64,000 nt of DNA from a virus, in the IMG/VR virus record IMGVR_UViG_3300025085_000010, positions 1 through 64,000 of that record; one strand, 5' to 3'. Below the pieces are notes generated by a model. It made no database searches. It was not told the DNA's origin and saw nothing but the letters and a program-made list of their open reading frames with translations. The translations under genes were made by a program, and so were the position numbers. Below are positions 12,401 to 60,285 of this stretch, piece after piece (position 1 is the first letter of the stretch; each line of letters starts with the position of its first letter).

Positions 12401-15400
12401 CTTCTGGTGCAAAAGTTACTCTTGAAGTTAATGACAGTACACCAGAGTTTTTATATTACAAACTTGATTTAATTGATGCAAATCCTGATGTAGATACCCC
12501 TGAGGTAAAGAAACAAATAATTGTAGATACTGAGATTGTAAACTCAAGTCAACTGGAAATATCAGAAAGTAATTATCAAGGAACTTATAAGATTGCTACA
12601 CCTTCAACAACATCATTTACTTATACTATAAAAGATGTTCCAGAAGCGTCTTCATATACTACTGCAGCCGGTGCTTTAATTGACTATACGACTGATTGTA
12701 CCCATACATATGGTCCAATAGCAAAAATTGATATTACTGGTGTTGGTAGAAACTATGAAACTCTTCCTGGGATTACAACTGTTAATAGTGTTTCTGGAAG
12801 AGGTGCTATTTTAGAGGCAAAGAGTTCTAATATTGGAAAAGCACTTAGCACTAAAATTAAAGATATTGGATATACTTATCCATCTGATCCAACTTTATCA
12901 CCATCTTTATTATATCCACAAATAGTAAAAATAGAACCTTTAGCCGTTTTTAATTCTATTGGTATAACATCTTTTGGAAAAGGATTTGCTATTCCACCAA
13001 AACTAGTTGTTCTTGATGGCAAAACCGAAAAACTAGTTTCTGATGTTGACCTAAAAGTAACACCTGGATCTCCAACTGTGGAAATCTTGAAGAATACAAA
13101 AGGAATTAATAATGTAGAACCAACAATTATTCCAACCCAAAGTGGTGCTGGTGTTGGAATTGGAACTATTTCATACGACTCTTCTACCAAAAATGTAACA
13201 GTTCAACTTGCTGTCGGATTTAGTACGGTAAATTCATTCCCATTTACAGTTGGTGATAAAGTTCTGATCGAAAATGTCAGTGTTGGTGTTGGATCAACCG
13301 GAAAAGGATTTAACTCAGAAAATTATGATTACAAATTATTTGAACTGACTGCGGTTAATGAGAGACTGGGTGGTATTGGTATCGTTACTTATAGTATGTC
13401 TGGACTTCTGAAATCTAATGAAATAGTTGGAGTGTTTGATGATGTAAATTCTTCGGCAAGAATCGTCGCAAAGAAGAGTTTCCCATTATTTGAACCACTA
13501 TTAACCACAAGAGAATATTTTAAAGGAGAAGTTGTAACTTCGGATTCTGCTACAGGAATAGTTGATTCTTGGAATTCAAGTTCGGATACATTAATAATTT
13601 CTTCTAATGTTAATTTTGTCGTTGGCGAAAAAATCATAGGCGAATCATCAGATTCTCATGGATTGGCCTCGTCAATTACATCTTATAATAATTATTACAA
13701 TTTAGACTCATCCTCTAAAGTAATAAAAGGATGGGATAATGATTCTGGAGAACTTAACTTTGAACTTCAGAGAATGCCTGATAATTTCTATTACCAGAAT
13801 TTCTCATATTCACTGAAATCGTCCGTACCATTTGAGACTTGGAATGAACCTGTTTCTTCCCTTAATCATACTTTAGGATTTAAAAAGTTCTCTGACTATC
13901 AGTTAGAGACGACAAATTCTAATAGTATGTCTGTTGGACTATCTACTGCTCTGACAAGTTTCTCCGTTGTTAATGATCTACAGGGATTTGCTAGCATTAA
14001 TTGCTTCTATGATTTTGATCTTGTAACCGAAAACAATTTGAATCTTAATTCAAAAGTTGTTTCTGATGAAATAGTATTCTCAAATAGAATTTTGACTGAC
14101 TATTTTGAATCAGTTGGAAACAGAGTTCTGTCGATTGACGATATTAGTGGTCAATTTAATAGTAATCCAAGACCTACGGCTTTCAGTGTCGTCGATACAT
14201 TTACTCTTGCTTCTACTAGATTTCAAAAATACATCACTTATGTAAGAGATAGGAGATTTACTGCACAAAGGCAACTTATGTTAGTTGATGTTATGCATGA
14301 TAATGCTCGCGGATATATCAATCAATATGCAAGAGTTGAAACACAATATGATCAAGGATCATTTGATTTTAGTATTTCTGGATCTGATGGACAACTTTTA
14401 TTCTACCCAACACGTTCGTCTATAAATGATTATAACATTATTACCATGTCATACGACATCGATGATGAGGTCTTAGGAACAGGAAATACAAGTTTTGGTG
14501 GAGTTGTTACTGTAAACACTGATAGCGTTGAAGTCGAGTCTGGAGTAACGAAAACTATCGTCTCTATCGCTGCTACACATTCTAGTTTAAAAGTTCTTGT
14601 TAATATCAATCCAGATATTGGATCAAATACAGAATTTGAGGCGGTTGAACTTAATATTACTAATAATGGCAGTGATGTTGCGATCACAGAATACGGAAGA
14701 CTTACTACAAATATTGATGGTGTTTCTGCTATAGGTCTTGGAACCTATCATGCATATGTTGATGGGGCAAATCTTAAAGTTGACTTTATTCCAACTGCAA
14801 CTGGTATCGGAACTACTGGTGCAATTAATACTGTACAAGTTGGTCTTGCCACCAATTCAGTTACTGGAATAGGAACTCTTGATCTGAGACATGCTCAACT
14901 TGAGGGAAGAACAACAAGTATTTCTGCATCTGGTTCTCCAGGAATTACAACTGTTGCAGAATATACTGATGTATATGATGGAGCATACTTCTTAGTCCAG
15001 GTTGCAGACACAACTAATGAAGAGATACAACTTTCTGAACTCGTCATCGTTGATGACTATGTTGATGGAACAGGAAGTTATGATGTTGATATGACTGAAT
15101 ATGGAAACGTTGAAACTTCTTCTGGACTAGGAACATTTGGAGCAAGAGTCTCTGCTGCAGGAACTGTATCGTTGGTATTCACTCCAAATGTAAGTATAGA
15201 CGCAGTAGTTAACGTGTTTAAAAACGCGCTGAGTATTAATGATGATGCAACTTTACCATCAACAGTGGCATTTACTAACTCTTCAATTACAACAAAACTA
15301 GGAGAATATACAGGAACCGATAGCGACATTAAGAGAGAGTTCATGCTTGAGCATGAAAATAAACAAATCTTTGAAAGATATTTTGAAGGTGACAGTAGCT

Positions 15401-18400
15401 CTGTCGTTGATATTAGTGCAAACACTATCAAGATTCCAGACCATTTCTTCGTAAGTGGAGAAAAACTGAGGTATGTTCATGTTGGAACTGCATCATCTGC
15501 AGTTGGAATTGCTACAACCAGTTTCGTTGGTGTGGCAGATACTACTTTCCTCCCAGGAGAAAATCTCTTTGCAGTCAAGGTTGATGACAATCTCATCAAG
15601 ATTGCATCTAGTGCAGAGAATGCACTGAAGTCAATTCCACAAGTTGTTCAGTTGGAAAGTGTTGGTATTGGCACATCTCATAGATTTATTTCTACGAATC
15701 AAAATGCCAAAGCGATTGTTGCTATCGATAATGTAATTCAGTCCCCAGTTGTTTCTACTGCTGTTACATCGCATCTAGCAAATCAGATGTCGGATACCGA
15801 TAATCTATTGACGTTTAGCGGAATAACCTCATTCTTTGGATCTGACTTAATTCAGATTAGTGATGAGATTATGAAGATCGAAGGTATTGGTATTGGAAGC
15901 ACAAACGTTATACGAGTTCGTAGAGAGTGGTTAGGAACTAAGATTGGAACTGCAGGAACTGGAGAACTAATTACAAAAGTTGCTGGCAATTATAATATTG
16001 TTGATAATCATCTCAACTTCGTTGAGGCTCCTTTTGGAAATACTCCAATTGGATCTACTACTAATCCTCCTGATGAAAGAGACTGGACTGGTATTACAAC
16101 GTCTTCTAGTTTCCAAGGAAGAACCTTCATAAGGTCTGGTATTGAAAACACATCAAATGAGTCCTATCATAAAAATTACATCTTTGATAATATTTCAAGT
16201 CAATTTAATGCAACTGAAAATGAATTCACTCTGAAGCAAAATGCCTCAGATGTTCCTGGTATTTCTACTGAAAATGCAATCATTCTTGTTAATGATGTAT
16301 TCCAAACTCCAGGACTTCTGAATCAGTATACTTTAGATGAAGCAGCTGGAATTACTACTATTACATTCCAAGGAACAGAAACAACTCCTCTGGGTTCTGA
16401 TGTTGGAATCTCTAGTTATCCAAAGGGTGGAATTATTGTTTCCGTTGCTTCTGTTGAAGGTCTTGGATATCAATCTCTTATTTCTGCTGGTGGAACCGCA
16501 GTTGTATCTGGAGCAGGAACTGTTTCTTCGGTTAGTATTGCCAATACTGGAACTGGATATAGAGGAAGAAACCAATATGAAATTTTAACTGACACATCCA
16601 GCCCTGTTGGAGTTGGATCTACTGAAATTTATTTGGAAGATTCAAATAGTGTTTATGATATTATTAGTTTGTTGAATACCGGCGATAACGTTACTATTGG
16701 TGTTGGAACATTCTTAAAATCAAATGTAACGGTTGTTTCTACTGCATCTACTTTCGTTAGAATTGGAGTTGGTTCTACAAGTGCTCTTGAAATTCCAACT
16801 GGAACTCAAGTTAGCATCGGTGTTACAAATCCAACTCTTGGATATGTTAACGTAAGTGTTGCCAATAGCGATATTGGTGCAACTACTTCAATATTCCATG
16901 TTGGTTTTGCAACCATTATGACTGGAACTGGCAACATCTCCACAGAGGTGACTGTCACAAATGATGGGGCAGAATTTAATTCGTCATCTTATGTTGTTGT
17001 AGATGATCCAGATTCTTATTCAAACCTCGACCTTACTTATTCCGCTTCTTCATCTGGAGTTGGAACTCATGCAACAATTGATGTTGTTGTTGGTCAAGGA
17101 TCTAGTGTAATTGATTTTGAACTCAAAAATAACGGATATGGTTATGGTAACGGAGATATTTTAACTGTTCCTATTGGAGGATTGACAGGAATTCCAACAA
17201 CATCATCTTTCAGTGAATTTACTTTAACTGTTGACAAAACTATTTTTGATAAATTCTCTGGATGGTCTCTTGGAACTCTCCAAGTTCTTGATGATGTTGG
17301 GAGATTTATCGATGGTGCAAGAAAAGATTTCCCACTTTCTCTTGCAGGCGGCACAGTTTCTATTGTTGCTGCAAAAGGATCGAATATCAACGTTCAGGAC
17401 GTGCTTCTTATTTTTGTTAATAATACACTTCAAGTTCCAGGAGAAGGATACACATTTGCTGGCGGAAGCACATTAAACTTTACAGAGGCACCTAAACTTG
17501 GAGATATAATCGAAATTGTGTTCTATAAAGGAAGTGGTGACACAGACGTTATTTTCAGAAACATTATCGAAACTGTGAAAAAAGGTGACTCTTTACAAAT
17601 TAAAAATGATTCTTCCAGAAATCAAGCATCTTCACTTATTGAAGATGAAAGAATTGTTGATAATATTAAATCTACAAGCACTGTTTCCACAAATCCATAC
17701 TTTGGACCAGGAAATACAAATGATATCACTTTAGATAGACCCGTTGTTTGGTGCAAACAAACTGAAGATGTCTTTGTCGATGAAATTGCTATTGGTAAAG
17801 ATCGTGAACTTTATGAACCAGTCATTAACCCTAGTGCTTATATTATTAAGTCTGTTGGTGTTGGATCAACTGCAATTTACGTGGACAACCTGAGACCCAT
17901 GTTTAATCCACAGAATGAAAATGATACTGATCTAACCTTCCAGAAGAAAGTTAAATTCGTCGCTCAGGAGTCCAAAACGGCAGCTGCAGCAACTGCAATT
18001 GTCTCTGGTCTTGGAACCATTTCTTCGATATCAATTTCTGACGGTGGTTCTGGATATGCATCAGCACCAGTCGTAACGATTGGAAGCACGGTTCAGGCAG
18101 TTGGTGTTGGAACCACTGCTCTTGCAACAGCATCCATTACCGCTGGGGTGGTAACAAACATTACTATTTCTAATGCTGGAACTGCCTATACAAACGTAAG
18201 TCCACCACCAGTTCTCATCGCACCTCCAACATATTCTGAAGAAGAGATTGCTGTCGATTCATATCAGGGTGATAATGGTATCATCGTTGGATTTGGAACT
18301 ACGGCTGTTGGAGTTGGAACCACTCAGTTAGTTCTTGACCTACATATTCCATACGACTCTTTCCTCAGAGAGTCTGCTATCGCAGGAACTGCTATTACAG

Positions 18401-18825
18401 TAAGTTCTCTTGCAGCGAATGATTATTTTGTTGTAAGAAATTCAAATGGTGGTGTTGGATCTACCTCAGTCACTTCTCTGGATACATCTGGAAACACTGT
18501 TGGTGTTGGAACATCCTTCATAGATAATGTCTACTACGTCTCCAGTGCTGAATTTATCTCAACCAGTGTGTCTGGAATAGACACTACTGTTAAGAGAGTC
18601 TTTGTCAAGGTTGACGATTACGCAAGTGGATACTCTGGTATTAATACATCAGACTTCTTTGGATCATTTAGTTGGGGAAGAATTGATGTCACTGGAAGAA
18701 CAGAGACAAACTCTTATTCCGCATATACCGAATCTGGAATCGGTGCAACTGATGGAACTGGCATTTCAACATCAACCATGGTTGTCAGATCTAACTTCTT
18801 GAAATTCAAAAACTATATCGTCTAA
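6403..18825 (+). CDS. giant baseplate/virion structural protein (gp7 position)
   Basis: This is a 4140-residue intact frame of 12.4 kb. Residues 1-290 form a conserved-looking N-terminal domain (PLVESFLKSYYLGQEYQGG, FLTKAKHQLAPGFENRTLTPELNQN, FYISKGTNKSFEILFKALY) that probably anchors it in the baseplate wedge. The rest is beta-repeat material: GGxGYxxxPxV units, at least six H-x(4)-G-(D/E)-x-V...YYV..VD..T(I/V)KL units, two tandem ITEYG/MTEYG...FTP modules (about nt 14590-15230) and many VGVGST linkers. A YHYH domain (AYDGNPIYGPY...NGR...YPEGTYAYF) lies at residues about 1258-1358. Its place between 6 and 8 is that of T4 gene 7, but it is about four times longer. The exact role (wedge, fibre attachment or receptor binding) is inferred. 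Confidence 0.85.
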   Translation: MSENRVQFNTIVASQLPTYVREDFPLVESFLKSYYLGQEYQGGPIDLIENIDRYIKLDETTNLTESAVLSGDIVFYGKTINVDPGKSPAGTKGFPDSYGLLKIDDEIISYTGKTDFSFTGCIRGFVGITSYRSKINKEEVVFEETASDDHKDGATITNLSCLFLKEFLTKAKHQLAPGFENRTLTPELNQNIFVKQAKDFYISKGTNKSFEILFKALYNKDVELITPRDFLFTPSNAGYRIVNQLVVEAIEGDPENLENATLYQDAYKFDDNLNAAYAPITSIEKIEVGYGKSFYKLSYDGGFNRTSGSAGGLTYGNFNIEPSTKVIGQVAAGTTVLDVDSTVGFGSTGELYVSYSNATTGIASYTSKSLTQFFGVTGISTIILDSTTVGVNTFTYGRSKIDQSEIIKVRVNSVLNSLNAPEDTKGLLKEGTVNIQTLGCADNTFKANKWIYNVSSVYKVAKVELTDSSDNTYKLTLNEANYFKPGNSASLIVSDGTTKKTNIIDVTGEKQLTIKGQGLLDLNLTYKVQRNRRKATSNTFTNLSEYSTDVENVYKSSVDNSYLVSSPSLPYYNAQPINVSPKEFKFSGSFVGTEFEISPGVEHGFYTGDAVYYSAALVDETFIDDSGNSATRKVRGDALFDDGLYFVKRVNSSTVKFAKSRNDILNSKFVSVDSAVTVSESLIKPYRFNSKTLEPQKILRKVSTPKTSEITETTKPGTTGILINGVEILNYKSRDVIRYGKINDIEVLAPGENIDIINPPNLIVNDSVGAGATGFLAISGSLKEVRIKDPGFDYLRTPTLKIDGGNGQGATGFVNMKLIDHNPEFFADLASAKVVIGTASTQSRIGFSTYHKFRNAEQVIYRTSDQSGITGIVTNSTYFVSSIDNVTVRLHPTQSDAISGINTVYLTEHGVGKHSLQSVNKKSVVESINVVTGGSGYQTKKRTAPAASGVSTASDSITIANHDYNSGEKVKYTCNGTIAFGLTADTEYYVTVVDKDSFKLSSVGLSSDREFNYRTKQYVDITSVGVGTHIFNYPAITATLVGEVGINSIGNQTFKSDIEPIFRGQVTSVHLENGGVGYGSSEIINLDFQPQVTIESGIDAQVTPIVNNGRIVNVIVQNSGSRYISVPDLNVNGDGVGAVLVPVIENGSITSVTVVESGGGYNQSSTTIDVINAGSTFNVPVFRANLQNWRVNLFEKNLPYFSADDGSIVDSDNQENLQYVHLYAPRKLRENTFAINQSGATAFGESDLKRTNGAESPSSKHSPILGFAYDGNPIYGPYAYRTKSGGVVTQMKSGYTLDLKANRPSTSTFPEGFFVEDYIHTNSTDESFLDENNGRFCITPDYPEGTYAYFMTIDEKDVSTSGIFKNYKAPKFPYIIGDNYHSIPDDFNFSLSSSADSFENLQNEYRRNTHPYNLIEDDSEYPYIYIPNKLSQTSEVTASSRGTISSIGIVTGGTEYRMNETLVFNNTGTGGDGVFAKVSRLQGKSVTSVSVATSSIENLEIYPGESKGQYILYANNPHNFKNLDVVTISGLSTTSSKIEGSYSVGIQSNRLAFAGIGTTGVAIGATSVTGIVTFFKVTGDLSPFKIRENDILMTGDEKLKVLNVDKINSRIRVLREAEGTTGSSHTIGKFIFEVPRKFTINSGFKTDYTYRQNEQIYFNPVNVVGLGTTAGVGIGTTITFANPGVGVTQKFIQTKALYIRNHNFQTGDQVTYSPGTSGSGIIVQDETNVGVGTTLADGQSLFVAKINDDLIGIATIRVGLGSTGTFVGLANTISTTLFFRSVGTGDTHSFTTNHTVLIGNVDRNLVTVATASTHGLSEPHNIALNVNPKNTKSIAFKYDDYNRRVLVDPIDFTGSEVSTTNSEITLTSHGLKSGDKVLHTATVPSVGLSSDKLYYVNRVDQNTIKLSDTYFDSTQEKPVVVDITSASSGTISPINPPIKLYKDSTVTFDLSDSSLGFIVQGKSYPAFELNFYRDKDFKIIWEKSDNSKVFEIVRSGSVGSSGAKVTLEVNDSTPEFLYYKLDLIDANPDVDTPEVKKQIIVDTEIVNSSQLEISESNYQGTYKIATPSTTSFTYTIKDVPEASSYTTAAGALIDYTTDCTHTYGPIAKIDITGVGRNYETLPGITTVNSVSGRGAILEAKSSNIGKALSTKIKDIGYTYPSDPTLSPSLLYPQIVKIEPLAVFNSIGITSFGKGFAIPPKLVVLDGKTEKLVSDVDLKVTPGSPTVEILKNTKGINNVEPTIIPTQSGAGVGIGTISYDSSTKNVTVQLAVGFSTVNSFPFTVGDKVLIENVSVGVGSTGKGFNSENYDYKLFELTAVNERLGGIGIVTYSMSGLLKSNEIVGVFDDVNSSARIVAKKSFPLFEPLLTTREYFKGEVVTSDSATGIVDSWNSSSDTLIISSNVNFVVGEKIIGESSDSHGLASSITSYNNYYNLDSSSKVIKGWDNDSGELNFELQRMPDNFYYQNFSYSLKSSVPFETWNEPVSSLNHTLGFKKFSDYQLETTNSNSMSVGLSTALTSFSVVNDLQGFASINCFYDFDLVTENNLNLNSKVVSDEIVFSNRILTDYFESVGNRVLSIDDISGQFNSNPRPTAFSVVDTFTLASTRFQKYITYVRDRRFTAQRQLMLVDVMHDNARGYINQYARVETQYDQGSFDFSISGSDGQLLFYPTRSSINDYNIITMSYDIDDEVLGTGNTSFGGVVTVNTDSVEVESGVTKTIVSIAATHSSLKVLVNINPDIGSNTEFEAVELNITNNGSDVAITEYGRLTTNIDGVSAIGLGTYHAYVDGANLKVDFIPTATGIGTTGAINTVQVGLATNSVTGIGTLDLRHAQLEGRTTSISASGSPGITTVAEYTDVYDGAYFLVQVADTTNEEIQLSELVIVDDYVDGTGSYDVDMTEYGNVETSSGLGTFGARVSAAGTVSLVFTPNVSIDAVVNVFKNALSINDDATLPSTVAFTNSSITTKLGEYTGTDSDIKREFMLEHENKQIFERYFEGDSSSVVDISANTIKIPDHFFVSGEKLRYVHVGTASSAVGIATTSFVGVADTTFLPGENLFAVKVDDNLIKIASSAENALKSIPQVVQLESVGIGTSHRFISTNQNAKAIVAIDNVIQSPVVSTAVTSHLANQMSDTDNLLTFSGITSFFGSDLIQISDEIMKIEGIGIGSTNVIRVRREWLGTKIGTAGTGELITKVAGNYNIVDNHLNFVEAPFGNTPIGSTTNPPDERDWTGITTSSSFQGRTFIRSGIENTSNESYHKNYIFDNISSQFNATENEFTLKQNASDVPGISTENAIILVNDVFQTPGLLNQYTLDEAAGITTITFQGTETTPLGSDVGISSYPKGGIIVSVASVEGLGYQSLISAGGTAVVSGAGTVSSVSIANTGTGYRGRNQYEILTDTSSPVGVGSTEIYLEDSNSVYDIISLLNTGDNVTIGVGTFLKSNVTVVSTASTFVRIGVGSTSALEIPTGTQVSIGVTNPTLGYVNVSVANSDIGATTSIFHVGFATIMTGTGNISTEVTVTNDGAEFNSSSYVVVDDPDSYSNLDLTYSASSSGVGTHATIDVVVGQGSSVIDFELKNNGYGYGNGDILTVPIGGLTGIPTTSSFSEFTLTVDKTIFDKFSGWSLGTLQVLDDVGRFIDGARKDFPLSLAGGTVSIVAAKGSNINVQDVLLIFVNNTLQVPGEGYTFAGGSTLNFTEAPKLGDIIEIVFYKGSGDTDVIFRNIIETVKKGDSLQIKNDSSRNQASSLIEDERIVDNIKSTSTVSTNPYFGPGNTNDITLDRPVVWCKQTEDVFVDEIAIGKDRELYEPVINPSAYIIKSVGVGSTAIYVDNLRPMFNPQNENDTDLTFQKKVKFVAQESKTAAAATAIVSGLGTISSISISDGGSGYASAPVVTIGSTVQAVGVGTTALATASITAGVVTNITISNAGTAYTNVSPPPVLIAPPTYSEEEIAVDSYQGDNGIIVGFGTTAVGVGTTQLVLDLHIPYDSFLRESAIAGTAITVSSLAANDYFVVRNSNGGVGSTSVTSLDTSGNTVGVGTSFIDNVYYVSSAEFISTSVSGIDTTVKRVFVKVDDYASGYSGINTSDFFGSFSWGRIDVTGRTETNSYSAYTESGIGATDGTGISTSTMVVRSNFLKFKNYIV

Positions 18826-43908: not shown

Positions 43909-44559
43909 ATGAAACTTATCAGGGAAGAAATAGAATCAGTAGAGTTTCTTGTCGAACAAAAGAACGGCAAGAAATCTATGTATATTGAGGGAGTTTTCCT
44001 TCAGGGTAACATCAAGAACCGTAATGGTCGTATGTATCCTATGGAAACTCTACGCCGTGAGGTTGGTCGTTATAATGAGTCGAATGTTCAGTCTGGTAGA
44101 GCACTCGGTGAACTTGGTCATCCTGATGGTCCTACCGTTAATCTCGATAGAGTCTCCCATAAAATCGTATCTCTGAAAGAGAGTGGATCCAACTTTGTTG
44201 GAAAAGCAAAGATTTTAAATACACCTATGGGTAAAATTGCATCTGCTTTGATAGAAGATGGCGTAAAACTCGGTGTTTCATCTCGTGGTATTGGTTCATT
44301 AAAGCAGACCCGTGAGGGTGTTAACATAGTCGGTGACGATTTTATGTTAGCAACTGCTGCTGATATCGTTGCTGATCCTTCTGCACCTGATGCTTTCGTT
44401 GAAGGCATTATGGAAGGTAAGGATTGGGTATGGGATGGAGGCATTCTTCGTGAGAAGTATGTAGAAAAAACTTACAGAGAAATCAACACTCTTGTAACTC
44501 AGAAACAACTTGACGAGAAAAAGTTAAATTTATTTAATGATTTCCTTGCGAATCTTTAG
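43909..44559 (+). CDS. gp21: prohead core protease gp21
   Basis: This 216-residue protein (T4 gp21: 212) is the serine protease that cleaves the scaffold and capsid N-termini during head maturation. The family signature is clear: GVFLQGNIKNRNGRMYP (29-44), GRALGELGHPDGPTVNL with catalytic H71, and LGVSSRGIGSL with the catalytic Ser at 124/125. AADIVADPSAPDAFVEGIMEG follows. It begins four bases after the 89-aa gene and is presumably co-transcribed with it. Confidence 0.95.
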   Translation: MKLIREEIESVEFLVEQKNGKKSMYIEGVFLQGNIKNRNGRMYPMETLRREVGRYNESNVQSGRALGELGHPDGPTVNLDRVSHKIVSLKESGSNFVGKAKILNTPMGKIASALIEDGVKLGVSSRGIGSLKQTREGVNIVGDDFMLATAADIVADPSAPDAFVEGIMEGKDWVWDGGILREKYVEKTYREINTLVTQKQLDEKKLNLFNDFLANL

Positions 44560-48030: not shown

Positions 48031-48461
48031 TCGACCTTGATGCACTTCAAGGAATGTGGGAAAAAGATTCTAAGATTGATATGGATAACCTCCATACAGA
48101 GTCCACAAATGTTCCCACCCTCCATGCGAAGTACTTTGAATTATATAATACCATCTTTCTTATGAGAAAGAAAGCAGAGCAACAAAGAAAGAATATCAGA
48201 CACGAACGATATGAATACTTCAGTGGTAAAGCTGACCCTGATGTGTACATAGATAATCCTTTTCCCAAAAAAATTCGTGACAAAGATACGATGCAAAAGT
48301 ATCTTGACGCTGACGAAAAATTGTCTACAGTATGTTTGAAAATAGACTACTATGATACGATGTTAGTATACATCGAAAGTATTCTAAAACAAATTACTAA
48401 TCGCACATATCAAATCAAAAACGCAATAGAGTTTATGAGATTTAATTCAGGATTGGGATGA
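48027..48461 (+). CDS. uvsY: recombination mediator UvsY
   Basis: A 144-residue, mainly helical protein (T4 UvsY: 137). It has the UvsY pattern in LHTESTNVPTLHAKYFELYNTIFLMRKKAEQQRKNIRHERYEYFSGKADPDVY and a C-terminal helix pair (KIDYYDTMLVYIESILKQITNRTYQIKNAIEFMRF). UvsY loads the recombinase UvsX on gp32-coated single strands during recombination-dependent replication. It overlaps its neighbours by ATGA on both sides. The halogenase gene separates it from uvsW, which is its close neighbour in T4. Confidence 0.9.
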   Translation: MIDLDALQGMWEKDSKIDMDNLHTESTNVPTLHAKYFELYNTIFLMRKKAEQQRKNIRHERYEYFSGKADPDVYIDNPFPKKIRDKDTMQKYLDADEKLSTVCLKIDYYDTMLVYIESILKQITNRTYQIKNAIEFMRFNSGLG

Positions 48462-49564
48462 AAAAATTATCCATCATAGGTGCAGGATCTGCTGGTTTAC
48501 TCTCCGCAGTTCAAGGATATTATGCATTTGTTAATAGACCTGATTGGGAAGTAGAACTTATTCATGATCCTAATGTACCGCCAGAGAAGGTGGGGCAAGG
48601 AACTGTTCCTGGAATAATGAATTTATTATCTACAGTCTTTGATGTTGATTGGGCAGACAATCCATTTGAAGCCACGATAAAGCATGGAATTATGTATAAA
48701 AACTGGGGAAAGAAGAAAGACAAATTCTTTCATCCTTTTGGTATGGGTTATTCTGCAGCGCACTATGATGTAAATAAGTTTAGAGAGTTTATTCTTTCGT
48801 CAAACAAATTTAAAGTAATAGAAAAAAATATAAAAGATTATAATGATGTAGATTCGGATTACATTATTGATTGTTCTGGTAAACCAACATCTTTCGATAA
48901 CTATACCACGCTAACTAATCCGATTAACTCTGTATTGCTGGGTAGATCTGAAAAAGAAGATAACCTTCACTGGACAGATTGTGTTGCTACTCCAGATGGA
49001 TGGTGTTTCAGAATTCCAAATATAGATTCTGTTTCTCATGGATATCTCTTCAATAAAGATATAACAACAGTAGAGCAAGCAAGAGAAAACTTTAGAGATA
49101 TATTTGGAATTGATTCTACTGATAATTTAAATTTTTCAAATTACATATCCAATCAATTTATAATTGACGATAGAATTTTTTTAAATGGTAATAAATTAAT
49201 GTTTATAGAACCTTTAGAAGCAAACTCAAATCCAGCATATGTACAGGCAACTAACAGATATTTGAGTTATATGTTAGGAGGAATGTCTAAGAAGCAAACG
49301 TATGATGAAATATTTTCGTACATAATTAAAATCCAAAATTATTTACTATGGTTGTATCAGTCTGGATCTAAATATAACACCCCTTTTTGGGACTATGCAA
49401 CCTCATTAGAGTTTGATGATACTTTATTTGATGCATTAGTCAACGTGTGTAGCAATAGATCTATGGAATCTGTATGGTCTTTGATAGATAATGAATCTGT
49501 TCCTGAAAAATATGGTCAGTGGGATTTATCAAGTTTCAAAACATGGATACAAAACACTAAATAA
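48458..49564 (+). CDS. flavin-dependent (tryptophan) halogenase-like protein
   Basis: A 368-residue flavoprotein. Residues 5-13 are the FAD-binding GxGxxG (IIGAGSAGL). GQGTVPGI (47-53) follows, and TIKHGIMYKNWG aligns with the segment around the catalytic lysine of PrnA/RebH (here K75). IEPLEANS (E251, E254) matches the conserved EPLE(S/A) motif. The family hallmark WxWxIP is altered to W182-C-F-R-I-P187. The protein is shorter than the 500-plus residues of tryptophan halogenases, so the C-terminal substrate part is reduced. It would chlorinate or brominate an aromatic substrate or act as a related FAD monooxygenase; a reduced-flavin partner would be needed. It overlaps uvsY by ATGA. Confidence 0.82.
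   Translation: MKKLSIIGAGSAGLLSAVQGYYAFVNRPDWEVELIHDPNVPPEKVGQGTVPGIMNLLSTVFDVDWADNPFEATIKHGIMYKNWGKKKDKFFHPFGMGYSAAHYDVNKFREFILSSNKFKVIEKNIKDYNDVDSDYIIDCSGKPTSFDNYTTLTNPINSVLLGRSEKEDNLHWTDCVATPDGWCFRIPNIDSVSHGYLFNKDITTVEQARENFRDIFGIDSTDNLNFSNYISNQFIIDDRIFLNGNKLMFIEPLEANSNPAYVQATNRYLSYMLGGMSKKQTYDEIFSYIIKIQNYLLWLYQSGSKYNTPFWDYATSLEFDDTLFDALVNVCSNRSMESVWSLIDNESVPEKYGQWDLSSFKTWIQNTK
49557..49564 (+). promoter_or_regulatory. late promoter motif CTAAATAA
   Basis: It includes the TAA stop of the halogenase gene (49562-49564). The next ATG follows after four bases (49569), so this promoter could only give a leaderless or very short-leader transcript of the 61-aa gene; it may serve uvsW. Confidence 0.35.
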
Positions 49565-54159: not shown

Positions 54160-55855
54160 GAAAATTCGTTGGAAAAATTTTCTATCCACTGGTAATCAGT
54201 ATACTGAGATAGGATTTACACAACACCCAACAAATCTGATTATTGGAACTAATGGAGCTGGCAAGAGCACTTTACTTGATGCTCTCACCTTTTCTCTGTT
54301 TGGGAAACCATTTCGTAAAATCAACAAACCTCAACTAGTCAATTCAGTCAACGAGAAGGACTGTATTGTTGAGGTAGAGTTTTCTATTGGGAATACTAAT
54401 TGGAAAGTTGTTCGTGGTATCAAACCAAATGTTTTTGAGGTGCATCGTGATGGCACTCTTCTAGATCAGTCTGCAGCTGCACTTGATCAGCAGAAGTGGT
54501 TTGAGCAAAACGTCATCAAGATGAACTATAAATCTTTTACTCAAATTGTAATTCTTGGTAGTAGCACGTTTGTTCCTTTTATGCAACTGACTGCTACAAA
54601 TCGTAGAGATGTGATTGAGGATCTTCTTGATATTCGTATCTTCTCCTCTATGAATAATCTGATGAAGGATAAGATTCGTCAGGTCAAAGAGGATATTAAA
54701 GTTTTAGATCTTAAGAAAGAATCTTTGAGCGATAAAGTTAAGATGCAAACTAACTTTATTGAAGAGATTGAGAATAAGAGTCAGGAAGATATTGCCATCA
54801 AAGAAAAGAATATTGGTTATATCTTGAATGAAGAGAACAATTTGATGAATCATGGCGAGAGACTGAATGAGGAACTCATTTCTCTTGAAAAGAAACTTGA
54901 AAAGTATTCTGGAGCTACAGAGAAACTCCGTACACTGGGTAATCTGAAAGGTAAGATCTCTAATAAGGTAGCGACGATTACGAAGGAGCATAAATTCTTC
55001 ACACAAAATACGGTTTGTCCTACCTGTGATCAAGCGATTGAAGAGACCTTCAGAATAAATAGAATTACCGACGCTCAAAATAAAGCAAAAGAGTTGCAAT
55101 CCGGTTATAAAGAACTGGAACAGGCGATTAATAAGGAAGAAGAGCGAGAGCGTCAATTCACCACTCTATCGAAGGAGATTACTACCCTAACACATGGCAT
55201 TTCTCAAAACAATATTAAGATCGCTGGATGTCAACGACAGGTCAGAGATCTGGAATCGGAAATTCAAAGAGTTACCGATAACCTTGCAAATAGAACTACT
55301 GAGAATGACAAGTTAGCAACCTTCAAGGATAATCTAAAAACTACATACGACGAACTCGTTCAACGTAAGGACACGATCAACTATTACGATTTTTCGTATA
55401 GTTTACTTAAAGACGGTGGAGTCAAATCTAAAATCATCAAGAAGTATTTGCCGCTGATAAATCAGCAAGTCAATAAGTACTTGCAACTTATGGACTTCTA
55501 TATTAACTTCTCTCTTGATGAGGAATTTAACGAAACCGTCCAGTCCCCAATTCACGACAATTTTTCTTATTCTTCTTTCAGCGAGGGAGAGAAGATGAGA
55601 ATCGACCTGGCCCTACTCTTCACTTGGCGTGAAGTGGCACGGATGAAGAATTCTGTAAATACAAATCTACTTATTATGGATGAAGTGTTTGACAGTTCTC
55701 TTGACGGATTTGGAACAGAAGAATTTTTAAAGATCATTCGGTTCGTTATCAAGGATGCGAATATCTTTGTTATCTCTCATAAGGAATCTTTGCACGATAA
55801 GTTTGCAGATGTGATTCGATTTGATAAGGTGAAAGGATTTAGTAGGATGGTTTGA
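54146..55855 (+). CDS. gp46: recombination nuclease ATPase gp46
   Basis: A 569-residue Rad50/SbcC-type SMC-like ATPase (T4 gp46: 560). Walker A is GTNGAGKST (34-42, K40). A long coiled coil surrounds the zinc hook C291-P-T-C294. The ABC signature is FSEGEKMRIDLALLF, and Walker B is LLIMDEVFD (D512, E513). With gp47 it resects DNA ends for recombination-dependent replication. The start overlaps the end of the DUF3110-like gene. The stop overlaps the next ATG by one base. Confidence 0.96.
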   Translation: MILFEKIRWKNFLSTGNQYTEIGFTQHPTNLIIGTNGAGKSTLLDALTFSLFGKPFRKINKPQLVNSVNEKDCIVEVEFSIGNTNWKVVRGIKPNVFEVHRDGTLLDQSAAALDQQKWFEQNVIKMNYKSFTQIVILGSSTFVPFMQLTATNRRDVIEDLLDIRIFSSMNNLMKDKIRQVKEDIKVLDLKKESLSDKVKMQTNFIEEIENKSQEDIAIKEKNIGYILNEENNLMNHGERLNEELISLEKKLEKYSGATEKLRTLGNLKGKISNKVATITKEHKFFTQNTVCPTCDQAIEETFRINRITDAQNKAKELQSGYKELEQAINKEEERERQFTTLSKEITTLTHGISQNNIKIAGCQRQVRDLESEIQRVTDNLANRTTENDKLATFKDNLKTTYDELVQRKDTINYYDFSYSLLKDGGVKSKIIKKYLPLINQQVNKYLQLMDFYINFSLDEEFNETVQSPIHDNFSYSSFSEGEKMRIDLALLFTWREVARMKNSVNTNLLIMDEVFDSSLDGFGTEEFLKIIRFVIKDANIFVISHKESLHDKFADVIRFDKVKGFSRMV

Positions 55856-56481
55856 TGCCGACATTTGTACATAAGGAAACGGGAAAGAAAATATTCTTCG
55901 CGCATATTCCTAGAACAGCAGGAAGATTTGTAGAAGCTAATCTGTTAGAAAATGGGTTTGATTGGGGTGATAGTCACCTTGATACTGGGTTAGGCGTGAT
56001 GTCTGTTGTGAATAATATTGAGATAGCACACTATCATCGCAAGTATTATCAAAAGTATTTGAATGTAGAAGAAGATACCCCTCAGTTCTCTATTGTTAGA
56101 AATCCTCTCACTCGATTTATTTCTGGCTCAATTTATCTAAAGAGAACATACGGTAACGATATACAATCGCAGATGGAAGATCCTATGTTGTTTGGGTCGA
56201 TGATACAAAATCTTCCTTTTGAAGGATCATGGAATTGGTATCGACCACAAGTAGATTTCTTGAGCAATCAAACTCACATTTGGAAATTTGAAAATAAGAT
56301 TGGAGATGAGTTTGCTGTTTGGTTAAGTGATATCATCGGCATTAATTTAAAGTTTGATGATAAGGTAGAGTATCCAAAATCTCATGATGAAGGAAATAAA
56401 TTAAAGATGTCTCCTGCTTTGGAGGTAAATATTAGAGGTGCCTATAATAAAGACTTTGAAGTATTGTATCAAAATAGATAA
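55855..56481 (+). CDS. sulfotransferase-like protein
   Basis: I start it at ATG 55855, which shares its A with the TGA of gene 46, and not at the TTG one codon upstream. The 208-residue product has FFAHIPRTAGRFVE (residues 14-27), the 5'-phosphosulfate loop of carbohydrate sulfotransferases (usually HIPKTAGT; here Lys is Arg). FSIVRNPLTRF (78-88) is the 3'-phosphate motif (RNPxxR). It would move sulfate from PAPS to a sugar or other acceptor. The Lys-to-Arg change makes activity less sure. It is appended to the 47-46 operon. Confidence 0.78.
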   Translation: MPTFVHKETGKKIFFAHIPRTAGRFVEANLLENGFDWGDSHLDTGLGVMSVVNNIEIAHYHRKYYQKYLNVEEDTPQFSIVRNPLTRFISGSIYLKRTYGNDIQSQMEDPMLFGSMIQNLPFEGSWNWYRPQVDFLSNQTHIWKFENKIGDEFAVWLSDIIGINLKFDDKVEYPKSHDEGNKLKMSPALEVNIRGAYNKDFEVLYQNR

Positions 56482-56880: not shown

Positions 56881-59016
56881 ATGGCAGTCAAGCACGAAAT
56901 CAAATCCCAACTTGCTAAACTGCTTGCTACTGAAGACTTGATCGTGGAGCACAAGCAAGTGCAGACCGCTTGCTTCAACGTCCACACCCGTGTCCTGACC
57001 CTTCCTATGTGGGAGAAGGCAAGCAACACCGTCTATGACCTGCTGGTGGGACATGAGGTTGGCCATGCACTCTTTACTCCTGATGAGAACTGGTTAGAGA
57101 AGGTTGCAGTTCCTCCCCAGTTTGTGAACGTGGTTGAGGATGCGCGAATTGAGAAACTGATGAAGCGCAAATATGCCGGACTAGCAAAAACTTTCTACCA
57201 TGGGTACAAGGAATTACAAGCAGAAGACTTTTTCTCTATATCTGACAGCAGTATTGCTGATCTTAATCTTGCTGATCGTGCAAATCTATACTTTAAGGTC
57301 GGTAATTTTGTAGATATTTCTTTTGATTCTGAAGAGAAAGTATTGATTCAGAAAATCGCAGATGTAGAAACATTTGATGATGCGTTAAGAGTTGCTGAAG
57401 AATTATATCTTTATTGTAAGAAAGAAAAAGAAGAGAAAGTAACTGATATGCCTATGCCACCTAATGAGATGGGTGGTGAATCTGAACAACCTGCAAATGA
57501 ACCAGTACAGGAGCAGCAGGAATCTGCTGGAGAGGGTGCTGGTGACTTTATGACTCATGAGGAGATGCTTGAGGAAGCAGCACGTAGAGAGACTGGTGCT
57601 CCTCTTAAAGATGAACCAGAGGTGCAGACTGCTGATGCTCTAGAATCAAATCTGCAAGATCTTGTAGACACTGATAGTCGTGAGAATGTATACGTGGAGA
57701 TCCCTAAAGTTGATCTGAAGTATATTATTGCCAAGAACGATGATATCCATAAAGATATTGATGCTTGGTTTAATCATCAGAAGAATAACTGTTCTCTAGG
57801 TATTTTTGAGATAGCTGATGAAGAGTTTGTTAAGTTCAAACGTAATGCACAGAAAGAAGTTAACTATCTGGTGAAAGAGTTTGAGTGTCGCAAGGCAGCA
57901 GATTCCTATGCCCGTGCTACCACTGCTCGTACAGGCATTCTTGATACTTCTAAACTGCATACCTACAAGTACAACGAAGATCTATTCAGGAAAGTCTCTG
58001 TGATTCCTGATGGTAAGAACCATGGACTGATCTTTGTTCTTGACTGGAGTGGTTCTATGAGCCGTGTGATGCTTGACACAATCAAGCAACTCTATAATCT
58101 GATCTGGTTCTGTAAGAAAGTCTCCATTCCTTTTGAGGTGTATGCTTTCACGAATGAGTGGAAGAAACCTGAAATCAATTATGAAACTAATGAACTTGTG
58201 AAATCTGCAGACTGGACTTCTTCTTATGTGAAGAAAGAAAATCTCCTTGCTGTTCATGAGCAGTTCTCTATGATGAATCTTCTGACCAGCAAAACAAATG
58301 GTAAGCAACTAGAACATCAGTTGATTAACATCTGGCGTATTGCAAAATCCTTCAGTAATTTCTACGGATCTCCTTATTCTGTTCCTACTCGTTTGGGTCT
58401 GTCTGGCACTCCTCTAAATGAAGCATTTGTGTGTCTTCACCAGATCCTTCCTCAGTTCCAGAAGCAGAACAAACTGCAGAAGGTTCAGTGTATTGCCTTG
58501 ACCGATGGTGAAGCAAATCATCTTTGTCGCCATGTTGAAGTACAGCGTCGTTGGGAAGATGAACCTTACATGGGAACTCGTCAGTTGTCTGGTGGTGTTA
58601 CTTTCCTTCGGGATCGTAAGACTGGCAATACCTACCAGGTTCCCTATGGTTATCACGGATTCTCTGACTTGATGCTACAGAATCTACGTGATAACTTTCC
58701 GTCTGTAAATTTTGTGGGTATTCGTGTTCTTGAGGGTCGCGATGCAAACCATTTCATGAAATTGTATTATGATCAGAATTCTAATGAGTTCCGTAAGATT
58801 CAAAGTGAATGGAAAAAGCAGAGGAGTTGTATTATTAAGACCTCTGGTTATCATGCATACTTTGCGATATCTGCTGCTTCTCTATCTCAAGATGCAGACT
58901 TTGAAGTTGATGATGGTGCAACCAAAGCAAAGATTAAGTCTGCATTCATCAAGTCTCTTAAGACTAAGAAACTAAATAAGAAGGTTCTTGGTGAATTTAT
59001 TTCTCTAGTAGCATGA
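56881..59016 (+). CDS. CobT-like VWA protein with HExxH protease motif
   Basis: A 711-residue protein with two functional halves. The N-terminal part has GHEVGHALF with the zinc motif H58-E-V-G-H62. 24 residues after H62 comes NVVEDARIE (E86), a likely third ligand, which fits a gluzincin-like metallopeptidase. An acidic low-complexity stretch covers about 185-255. The C-terminal half is a von Willebrand A domain with MIDAS residues DWSGSMS (D388) and ALTDGEA (D542). VWA plus MoxR-type ATPase pairs, including CobT-CobS, act as metal-chelatase or remodelling machines. The CobS ATPase is only 204 bases downstream, with one 48-aa gene between. The two halves in one protein suggest ATPase-controlled proteolysis. 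Confidence 0.82.
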   Translation: MAVKHEIKSQLAKLLATEDLIVEHKQVQTACFNVHTRVLTLPMWEKASNTVYDLLVGHEVGHALFTPDENWLEKVAVPPQFVNVVEDARIEKLMKRKYAGLAKTFYHGYKELQAEDFFSISDSSIADLNLADRANLYFKVGNFVDISFDSEEKVLIQKIADVETFDDALRVAEELYLYCKKEKEEKVTDMPMPPNEMGGESEQPANEPVQEQQESAGEGAGDFMTHEEMLEEAARRETGAPLKDEPEVQTADALESNLQDLVDTDSRENVYVEIPKVDLKYIIAKNDDIHKDIDAWFNHQKNNCSLGIFEIADEEFVKFKRNAQKEVNYLVKEFECRKAADSYARATTARTGILDTSKLHTYKYNEDLFRKVSVIPDGKNHGLIFVLDWSGSMSRVMLDTIKQLYNLIWFCKKVSIPFEVYAFTNEWKKPEINYETNELVKSADWTSSYVKKENLLAVHEQFSMMNLLTSKTNGKQLEHQLINIWRIAKSFSNFYGSPYSVPTRLGLSGTPLNEAFVCLHQILPQFQKQNKLQKVQCIALTDGEANHLCRHVEVQRRWEDEPYMGTRQLSGGVTFLRDRKTGNTYQVPYGYHGFSDLMLQNLRDNFPSVNFVGIRVLEGRDANHFMKLYYDQNSNEFRKIQSEWKKQRSCIIKTSGYHAYFAISAASLSQDADFEVDDGATKAKIKSAFIKSLKTKKLNKKVLGEFISLVA

Positions 59017-59159
59017 CAAAAGAAAATTGGAGAGAAATTGCAAAGGCATCTGAAAAGGACCCTAAGGTGATTAAAATCCTTGAGGATGGTCCTAGATCTC
59101 TTGGTCAGGCATATCTACTCCAAGCCATGCGATACAAGTATGGACAGTCTGGAAAGTGA
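59013..59159 (+). CDS. small phage protein coupled to the VWA gene (48 aa)
   Basis: ATG at 59013 overlaps the TGA of the VWA gene (ATGA). It opens a 48-residue, helical, slightly basic protein (MTKENWREIAKASEKDPKVIKILEDG...QAYLLQAMRYKYGQSGK) ending at TGA 59157-59159. A strong terminator follows directly. No homologue is recognised. Translational coupling supports that it is real and acts with the VWA protein. Confidence 0.65.
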   Translation: MTKENWREIAKASEKDPKVIKILEDGPRSLGQAYLLQAMRYKYGQSGK

Positions 59160-59164
59160 CACGC

Positions 59165-59188
59165 GGGGGGTTTGAGACCTCCCTTTTT
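59165..59188 (+). terminator. rho-independent terminator before cobS
   Basis: GGGGGGT at 59165-59171, loop TTGAG, ACCTCCC at 59177-59183 (one G-T pair) and TTTTT at 59184-59188. It separates the VWA transcript from cobS, 33 bases before the cobS ATG. Confidence 0.85.
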
Positions 59189-59220
59189 CGTTTATAATAA
59201 CTTCAGTTCAAACAAACCAC

Positions 59221-60285
59221 ATGTCCCTCTCACCTGAGTTCATTCGCACTTCCCTTCAGGGATTGTATGGTGAGTCTGTTGCTGCTGCTGATATTCGTGC
59301 CTGGTGTGCTATGAATGGTGCGAACTATCAAACTGTCACCAACAAACTTACTGATTACAAAACTAGTCGTGGAAAGTGGAACTTGACCGTACAAGAAAAA
59401 CTAGAGCAAACCTATCAGGCACCAACTGCTATGCCTGCCGTTGAACAAAACCTTATTCCTGCAAAAGATGATACCTTCGTCAGCTTTGGTAACTTCGCTG
59501 ATGTTAAAAAGATTATTAAGTCCAATCTATTTTATCCTACGTTCATTACGGGTCTTTCAGGTAATGGTAAGACGTTCTCTGTGGAGCAAGCATGTGCTCA
59601 ATTGGGTAGAGAACTTATCCGAGTCAACATTACAGTAGAAACCGATGAAGATGATCTTATTGGCGGTTTCCGTCTTGTTGGTGGAGAAACCGTTTGGCAC
59701 AACGGACCAGTTATCGAAGCACTGCAACGGGGTGCTGTGCTGCTCCTTGATGAGATCGACCTTGCCTCAAACAAAATTCTCTGTCTTCAATCTATTCTCG
59801 AAGGAAAAGGAGTTTTCCTCAAGAAGATTGGCAAATGGGTTACTCCCGCAGAAGGTTTCCAAGTATTCGCAACCGCAAATACCAAAGGTAAAGGTTCCGA
59901 CGATGGAAGATTCATCGGAACTAACGTGCTCAACGAAGCATTCCTTGAGCGATTCCCTGTGACCTTTGAGCAAGAGTATCCTGCTGCTGTCACAGAACAG
60001 AAGATCCTTGGTAAGATTTGTGAGGATGCAGATTTCTGTAAGCGTCTCTCTGACTGGGCTGACATCATCCGCAAGACCTTCTATGATGGTGGTATTGAGG
60101 AGATCATCAGCACCCGTCGTTTGGTCCATATCGTGAAGGCATACAGTATTTTTGGAGACAAGGCAAAGGCAATTCAAGTTTGTGTAAATCGTTTTGATGA
60201 TGAGACAAAACAAGCATTCCTTGAATTGTATGATAAAGTTGACGCAGACTTCGTGATGCCCGTTGACGAAACCCCTACAATTTGA
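59221..60285 (+). CDS. cobS: CobS, MoxR-type AAA+ ATPase
   Basis: A 354-residue AAA+ protein. After an N-terminal domain of about 90 residues come Walker A GLSGNGKT (111-118), ETDEDDLIGGFRLVGGETVWHNGPVIEALQRG (the MoxR/CbbQ-type pre-sensor loop) and Walker B LLLDEID (174-180). A sensor-1 region FATANTKGKGSDDGRFIGTNVLNEAFLERFPVTFE follows. Cyanophage homologues are annotated CobS, the ATPase subunit of aerobic cobaltochelatase (cobalamin pathway). The same fold powers MoxR-VWA protein machines. The CobT-like VWA/HExxH protein just upstream is its obvious partner. No CobN is in the window. Confidence 0.85.
   Translation: MSLSPEFIRTSLQGLYGESVAAADIRAWCAMNGANYQTVTNKLTDYKTSRGKWNLTVQEKLEQTYQAPTAMPAVEQNLIPAKDDTFVSFGNFADVKKIIKSNLFYPTFITGLSGNGKTFSVEQACAQLGRELIRVNITVETDEDDLIGGFRLVGGETVWHNGPVIEALQRGAVLLLDEIDLASNKILCLQSILEGKGVFLKKIGKWVTPAEGFQVFATANTKGKGSDDGRFIGTNVLNEAFLERFPVTFEQEYPAAVTEQKILGKICEDADFCKRLSDWADIIRKTFYDGGIEEIISTRRLVHIVKAYSIFGDKAKAIQVCVNRFDDETKQAFLELYDKVDADFVMPVDETPTI

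What the first reader, a model, noticed from the sequence alone, without database searches (positions are those of the whole stretch)
56881..60285. CobS ATPase paired with a VWA protein that also carries an HExxH protease motif
In cyanophages cobS is usually read as a cobalamin gene. Here its neighbour is a 711-aa protein combining an N-terminal HEVGH zinc motif, a likely third ligand in NVVEDARIE, and a C-terminal VWA domain with intact MIDAS residues (DxSxS, TDG). No CobN lies in the window. The arrangement is that of a MoxR-VWA machine with its own protease, so the pair may be an ATP-driven protein remodeller or protease used against host or phage proteins, and not only a chelatase. A 48-aa gene coupled by ATGA overlap may be a third component.
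Basis: partly seen in the sequence, partly recalled or inferred. Interest (0 to 1): 0.8.

Follow-up and report, generated by a model that had tools for sequence, protein, structure and literature searches.

The report
Phage ATPase-VWA pair with intact protease site
A gene pair that nearly every T4-like cyanophage carries, usually labelled as vitamin B12 genes, looks like an ATP-driven protein-remodelling machine with an intact zinc-protease site, a site that the true B12 enzyme subunit CobT has lost.

Summary
The 711-aa protein carries HEVGH (58-62), NVVED (83-87, E86 the likely third zinc ligand) and a VWA domain with a complete MIDAS; the gene two downstream is a CobS-like MoxR-clade ATPase. 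The zinc motif is intact in 106 of 106 N-terminally complete viral relatives, DxSxS in 115 of 115. The protein is a remote CobT homologue, reached only through intermediates: CobT-like proteins of other phages, phage-plasmids, an IncC plasmid and probable integrative elements that keep HExxH and N..ED. None of 80 chromosomal CobTs has HExxH; they read D-S-M-A-L-R there. A VWA-only tree puts chromosomal CobT in one clade, so loss in CobT is the simplest reading. CobN is absent from 10 of 10 phage records. The pair lies inside DNA replication and recombination modules, not beside virion genes. Two published readings compete (mis-annotated CobT; MoxR-vWA with a peptidase domain): the descent of the first and the domain reading of the second both fit. 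I favour an ATP-driven metalloprotease or remodeller acting on DNA-associated proteins; catalysis and substrate are inferred. The 48-aa gene is not a conserved third part; a recurrent terminator separates it from cobS.

The parts
56881..59016 (+). 711-aa VWA protein with N-terminal zincin-like domain; remote CobT homologue; PHROG 459 'peptidase'
56881..57435 (+). N-terminal zincin-like domain (residues 1-185)
   Evidence: model pLDDT 88; zincins fill most of the weak top Foldseek matches; profile match to the bridging mobile-element domain, E 8.6e-17
57052..57066 (+). HEVGH (H58-H62), predicted zinc site, in helix 49-65
   Evidence: 106 of 106 N-terminally complete relatives
57127..57153 (+). 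NVVEDARIE (N83-E91), likely third zinc ligand E86, in helix 79-97
   Evidence: invariant N83, E86, D87
57442..57609 (+). acidic low-confidence linker (residues about 188-243) between the two halves
   Evidence: pLDDT under 50
58021..58899 (+). VWA domain with inserts (residues about 381-673); MIDAS D388, S390, S392, T510, D542
   Evidence: best Foldseek match is the NorD chain of NorQD
59013..59159 (+). 48-aa protein, PHROG 869, ATGA overlap; found in close relatives only
59165..59188 (+). intrinsic-terminator-like hairpin plus T run between the 48-aa gene and cobS; such a hairpin in 66 of 114 relatives, with changed stem sequences
59221..60285 (+). CobS-like MoxR-clade AAA+ ATPase, PHROG 249, AAA_5

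Best explanation
The pair is a MoxR-type AAA+ ring (the CobS-like protein) with a VWA partner whose N-terminal half is an intact zincin-type metalloprotease domain. Shown here: the two genes are linked and co-inherited, both metal sites are conserved, and the N-terminal domain is homologous (through intermediates) to the N-terminal domain of CobT, which lacks the zinc site. Inferred: by analogy with NorQ-NorD, the VWA domain sits on the ATPase ring, the MIDAS holds a target, and ATP hydrolysis moves the VWA half against the N-terminal half through the acidic linker; the zincin domain then cuts, or is gated by, the remodelled target. From its place in replication and recombination modules of unrelated mobile elements, the target is most likely a protein bound to DNA or part of the replisome or nucleoid (the weakest step). 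It is not a cobaltochelatase in its main role.
For: Zinc and MIDAS residues invariant in 34 viral relatives; zinc motif in 106 of 106. In ten N-domains from phages, phage-plasmids, an IncC plasmid and probable integrative elements, 17-36% identical to the first, six of the nine invariant columns are H74, E75, H78, E106, D107 and E111. Chromosomal CobT: 0 of 80 with HExxH, same place by two aligners. In the VWA-only tree chromosomal CobT is one clade, SH-aLRT 99. cobS follows in 75 of 80 first-scan loci, the other 5 have too little sequence downstream. CobN absent from 10 of 10 phage records and this contig. Best fold match of the whole model is NorD bound to NorQ. N-domain top Foldseek ranks are mainly zincins. 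Context: uvsW, gp55, gp47, gp46, pair, gp45, gp44 in T4-like phages; dnaE in Rhizobium, enteric, Pseudomonas, Stenotrophomonas and Acinetobacter elements; primase in ICP2 and three probable integrative elements; ssb, bet, exo in IncC.
Against: No metal binding, protease or ATPase activity measured; no substrate known. Phages nickie and ANB28 lack HExxH yet keep the pair and the dnaE context, so proteolysis is not essential everywhere. Zincin Foldseek E-values are weak (0.12 upward). The context argument is qualitative: no chance rate was computed, and T4-like synteny may be passive. A terminator-like hairpin lies between the two genes. CobS-VWA contact in this phage was not modelled.
Confidence: 0.55

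Rival explanations
1. Viral CobST joins the host CobN and raises cobalamin or pseudocobalamin synthesis (published reading, PMC8651126).
For: Real homology to CobS (NCBIfam PD_CobS E 2.8e-17; PDB CobS E 2e-19) and, through intermediates, to CobT. Cyanobacteria encode CobN but no CobS or CobT (PMC9227772); CobN rings in Synechococcus elongatus.
Against: No CobN in 10 phage records. Relatives occur in Pelagibacter phages and E. coli phage-plasmids, whose hosts are believed not to make corrins (own knowledge; for E. coli also the abstract of PMC6249242). Zinc site invariant in the virus, absent in chromosomal CobT. The cyanomyovirus P-HM2 uses NrdA and NrdB (PMC5082946), class I enzymes that need no B12 (own knowledge).
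Confidence: 0.1
2. Virion assembly and maturation machine: chaperone plus protease for structural proteins (proposed for group 2.2 jumbo phages, PMC7824862).
For: Intact protease site; precedent of a MoxR-vWA pair in Acidianus two-tailed virus cited in that paper.
Against: This genome already has a head maturation protease (43909-44559). The pair lies in the replication block, away from the structural block. The family is also on an IncC conjugative plasmid and in probable integrative elements that appear to make no virion.
Confidence: 0.13
3. Anti-host or anti-defence protease-remodeller.
For: Carried by many mobile elements; weak fold resemblance to the antirestriction protein ArdC.
Against: No match in the defence library apart from one weak DrmE hit to the Cyrano protein; core and nearly universal in T4-like cyanophages, not patchy.
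Confidence: 0.1
4. Metal-insertion chaperone: HExxH holds a metal that the ATPase-VWA machine delivers into a client, as NorQD and CobNST do, with no proteolysis.
For: Known MoxR-VWA relatives insert metals (PMC13036017); several 2OG-Fe(II) oxygenases lie nearby.
Against: The relative with an established metal-insertion role, chromosomal CobT, is the one without the site; the glutamate of HExxH (E59, E75) is invariant, as expected for a catalytic base rather than a mere metal ligand.
Confidence: 0.12

Closest known systems
CobS-CobT of aerobic cobaltochelatase CobNST
   Same: AAA+ and VWA subunits, adjacent genes, homologous N-terminal domain (bridged); E of N..ED kept in CobT. CobT N-terminal and CobS C-terminal fragments share PDB entry 21vu.
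   Different: CobT has no HExxH (0 of 80); CobN missing from the viruses; direct cyanophage-CobT profile match is weak.
MoxR-vWA-metallopeptidase pair of group 2.2 jumbo phages (PMC7824862)
   Same: Same architecture in words: MoxR ATPase and a vWA protein with an N-terminal metallopeptidase.
   Different: Described for another phage group with a virion role; I could not find its example proteins (ASV44728/9) here, so identity of family is untested. Cyanophages, plasmids, the CobT link and the replication context are not in the passage.
NorQ-NorD
   Same: MoxR ATPase with VWA partner; best Foldseek match is the NorD chain.
   Different: The cyanophage protein has a zincin-like N-domain; NorD was not checked for one.
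IncC and integrative-element module: AAA ATPase + DUF3150 + VWA-HExxH + primase or ssb-bet-exo
   Same: HExxH and N..ED in a VWA protein, with an AAA ATPase nearby in two of the loci read.
   Different: Extra DUF3150 gene, not seen in the cyanophages.
Zincins ArdC, PprI/IrrE, Wss1, mini-gluzincins (selecase, jannalysin)
   Same: Helix with HExxH followed by a helix with a glutamate; top, weak Foldseek matches.
   Different: No VWA or ATPase partner known to me; no sequence match found.

Membership tests
Aerobic cobaltochelatase subunit CobT | Pfam CobT / CobT_C match | tested here: not met
   No Pfam match for the 711-aa protein even at E 1; NCBIfam Cob-chelat-sub only E 0.07. Bridging relatives do match.
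Aerobic cobaltochelatase subunit CobT | N-domain without HExxH, as in all chromosomal CobT read | tested here: not met
   0 of 80 chromosomal CobT have HExxH; this protein and 106 of 106 relatives do.
Aerobic cobaltochelatase subunit CobT | Works with CobN in the same cell | tested here: inconclusive
   No CobN in the virus; cyanobacterial hosts have CobN (PMC9227772).
CobS | NCBIfam PD_CobS above cut-off | tested here: not met
   62.9 bits against a cut-off of 558.55: homologue, not an equivalog by that rule.
MoxR-clade AAA+ with VWA partner | AAA+ of the AAA_5/CbbQ/CobS group beside a VWA gene with intact MIDAS | tested here: met
   AAA_5 E 6.7e-17, CbbQ_C weak; NorQ and CobS matches; MIDAS invariant; adjacency.
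MoxR-clade AAA+ with VWA partner | Helix-2 insert of the MoxR clade | not tested
   the ATPase was not folded
MoxR-clade AAA+ with VWA partner | Physical ATPase-VWA complex | not testable with these tools
   Only single chains could be folded.
Zincin metallopeptidase | HExxH plus downstream third ligand, conserved | tested here: met
Zincin metallopeptidase | Zincin fold | tested here: inconclusive
   Confident 185-aa model; zincins dominate the top Foldseek ranks but all E are above 0.1.
Zincin metallopeptidase | Zinc binding and peptide cleavage | not testable with these tools
   needs purified protein

The most novel reading that the evidence does not exclude
CobT of the B12 enzyme is a retired protease: its N-terminal domain descends from the zincin domain of an AAA+-VWA-metalloprotease machine that still works in phages, phage-plasmids, IncC plasmids and integrative elements, where it acts on DNA-bound proteins during replication or recombination.
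Probability: 0.33. Interest if true: 0.85.

Novelty: new variant of a known kind. Interest (0 to 1): 0.62.

Why it matters
cobS is a core gene of T4-like cyanophages and is routinely listed as a vitamin B12 or nucleotide-related auxiliary metabolic gene in ocean surveys (for example PMC9983427, PMC7029224); if the pair is a protease-remodeller, those assignments are wrong. The same kind of protein sits on IncC plasmids and phage-plasmids of clinical bacteria. The CobT link gives a testable origin for a subunit of a classical enzyme.

Tried and rejected
Direct cyanophage-to-CobT profile comparison gave no usable match; bridging sequences were needed. Profile search of A2 against PDB sequences found nothing real. 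A scan with the Roseobacter phage protein in viral contigs found no relative. PHROG 1576 in Atu_ph07: no match, so the jumbo-phage example was not reached. The 48-aa gene as third component: rejected (P-RSM4 and P-SSM2 have unrelated genes there, and no homologue was detected in many relatives). 'Pair as one simple operon': qualified by the recurrent hairpin. The RNA fold of the intergenic region is not unusual against shuffles (z -0.33); the case for the terminator rests on its recurrence with changed stems. Expression timing of cobS and peptidase was not found in the main texts read; the virion proteome table is in a supplement that could not be read.

Full report
Observation. The ORFs and motifs are as described. 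The 711-aa protein has an N-terminal domain with HEVGH and NVVED, an acidic low-confidence linker and a C-terminal VWA domain with a complete MIDAS. The 354-aa protein is an AAA_5 ATPase whose nearest solved relatives by sequence are midasin modules, CobS and NorQ. HExxH alone would not be remarkable (4% of shuffles). Conservation is: 60 of 711 residues are invariant in 34 viral relatives, and they include all zinc-site and MIDAS residues. Of 125 relatives read from viral contigs, 106 are complete at the N-terminus; HExxH plus N..ED is present in all 106, and DxSxS in all 115 that hold the C-terminal part (one search used a pattern that was too strict and missed a few, as one search shows).

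Linkage. In the first scan cobS follows the gene in 75 of 80 loci and the other 5 have too little sequence downstream; over all scans 114 of 125 loci hold it. GenBank phages: 463 records hold the 711-aa homologue and 471 hold CobS over 80% of its length, with the same counts for records named Synechococcus, Cyanophage and Prochlorococcus. The 48-aa gene was found by BLAST in most close relatives but not in most of the more distant loci, and is replaced by unrelated genes in P-RSM4 and P-SSM2. A hairpin followed by a T run lies between it and cobS (59165-59188); such a hairpin recurs in 66 of 114 loci with different paired stems, so the two genes are probably not one simple transcript.

Relation to CobT. 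Cyanophage and chromosomal CobT profiles do not match usefully. The bridge is a set of CobT-like proteins in other mobile elements: E. coli phage-plasmid Cyrano, Rhizobium phage X66, Roseobacter phage CRP-810, an IncC plasmid, an Acinetobacter phage-plasmid, and bacterial loci that look like integrative elements (L265, L266, L268, L270, L271). They match Pfam CobT to varying degree, keep HExxH and, in nearly all, N..ED, and their N-domain profile matches the cyanophage N-domain at E 8.6e-17 and the chromosomal CobT N-domain at E 8e-10. At the HExxH position chromosomal CobT reads D-S-M-A-L-R or similar, and at N-x-x-E-D reads D-A-V-E-Q or similar: 0 of 80 have HExxH. A tree built from the VWA part alone puts 17 chromosomal CobT and CobT-like proteins in one clade (SH-aLRT 99), with HExxH lineages outside it and at least three state changes in all. 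Since rebuilding a whole zinc site is unlikely, loss in CobT is the simplest reading; the root is not established and several end branches are long. The 237 matching genomes were not all read for the motif: of 50 loci taken from them, mostly the best matches and the oddest, 7 have HExxH in the right place.

Exceptions. Phages nickie and ANB28 have lost HExxH while keeping a CobS-like partner or AAA-type neighbour and the dnaE neighbourhood. ICP2 and GMA3 have HExxH but a changed or uncertain third-ligand region; L268 has it with G-I-L-E-D. L279 has an HExxH elsewhere in the chain, counted as absent.

Structure. The full model has mean pLDDT 76; the 185-aa N-domain model 88. HEVGH sits in helix 49-65 and NVVED in helix 79-97. 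Foldseek's best match for the whole model is the NorD chain of the NorQD complex. For the N-domain no match is significant by E-value, but ArdC, jannalysin, selecase, abylysin, PprI/IrrE and Wss1 make up most of the top thirteen. PDB entry 21vu holds a CobS C-terminal and a CobT N-terminal chain, which suggests that this domain meets the ATPase; I did not see the structure.

Function. No CobN in ten phage records or in this contig. 11 of 15 genomes carrying chromosomal CobT have CobN; the four without include two Bartonella, so CobT without CobN exists in bacteria as well. Hosts of relatives include Pelagibacter and E. coli, which I take from general knowledge not to make corrins (for E. coli also the abstract of PMC6249242); I did not test those host genomes. 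Cyanobacteria have CobN (PMC9227772), so the chelatase reading is not excluded for cyanophages. The pair sits among replication and recombination genes in every T4-like genome read and near dnaE, primase, or ssb-bet-exo in most of the other elements; Gordonia phage GMA3 shows no such neighbour in the annotation and CRP-810 only an endonuclease V gene. No chance rate was computed. In the window the structural block, with its own head maturation protease, ends before uvsY and uvsW.

Prior work. PMC7824862 reports a MoxR-vWA pair with an N-terminal metallopeptidase in group 2.2 jumbo phages and proposes a virion role; cyanophage P-SSM2 is there called group 2.1. PMC8651126 regards the cyanophage peptidase as mis-annotated CobT that hijacks host CobN. 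My evidence joins the two: descent shared with CobT, protease site intact. I found no paper in the library that states the loss of the site in CobT, but the library lacks most subscription journals and no search was made for that statement alone.

Noticed in passing
window 59165-59188: Terminator-like hairpin between the 48-aa gene and cobS; such hairpins recur in 66 of 114 relatives with differing but paired stems, some with UUCG-type loops.
   Followed up: partly
L095:6001-7797: VWA protein with HEAAH and NVLEDCRIE on an IncC plasmid, near an AAA ATPase, DUF3150, ssb, bet and exo; over a thousand plasmids hold some relative of the Cyrano protein.
   Followed up: partly
L096:3974-6058 and L098:3992-5977: Phages nickie and ANB28 carry CobT-like proteins with the zinc site lost, apparently apart from the chromosomal CobT clade.
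   Followed up: no
L199, L208 (Bartonella), L170, L211: Genomes with chromosomal CobT and no CobN match: another role for CobST, or an incomplete genome.
   Followed up: no
L090:5971-6855: Staphylococcus phage 812 (and, by search, Listeria phages) have a CobS-like ATPase called porphyrin biosynthesis; in 812 the next gene shows no evident VWA motif.
   Followed up: no
window 55852-56481: Sulfotransferase-like gene between gp46 and the pair (Pfam Sulfotransfer_2, PHROG 3347).
   Followed up: no
window 48458-49564: Tryptophan halogenase homologue (PHROG 2928) between uvsY and uvsW.
   Followed up: no
window 6403-18825: 4140-aa protein matching baseplate wedge PHROG 2885 over its first 3408 residues.
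   Followed up: no
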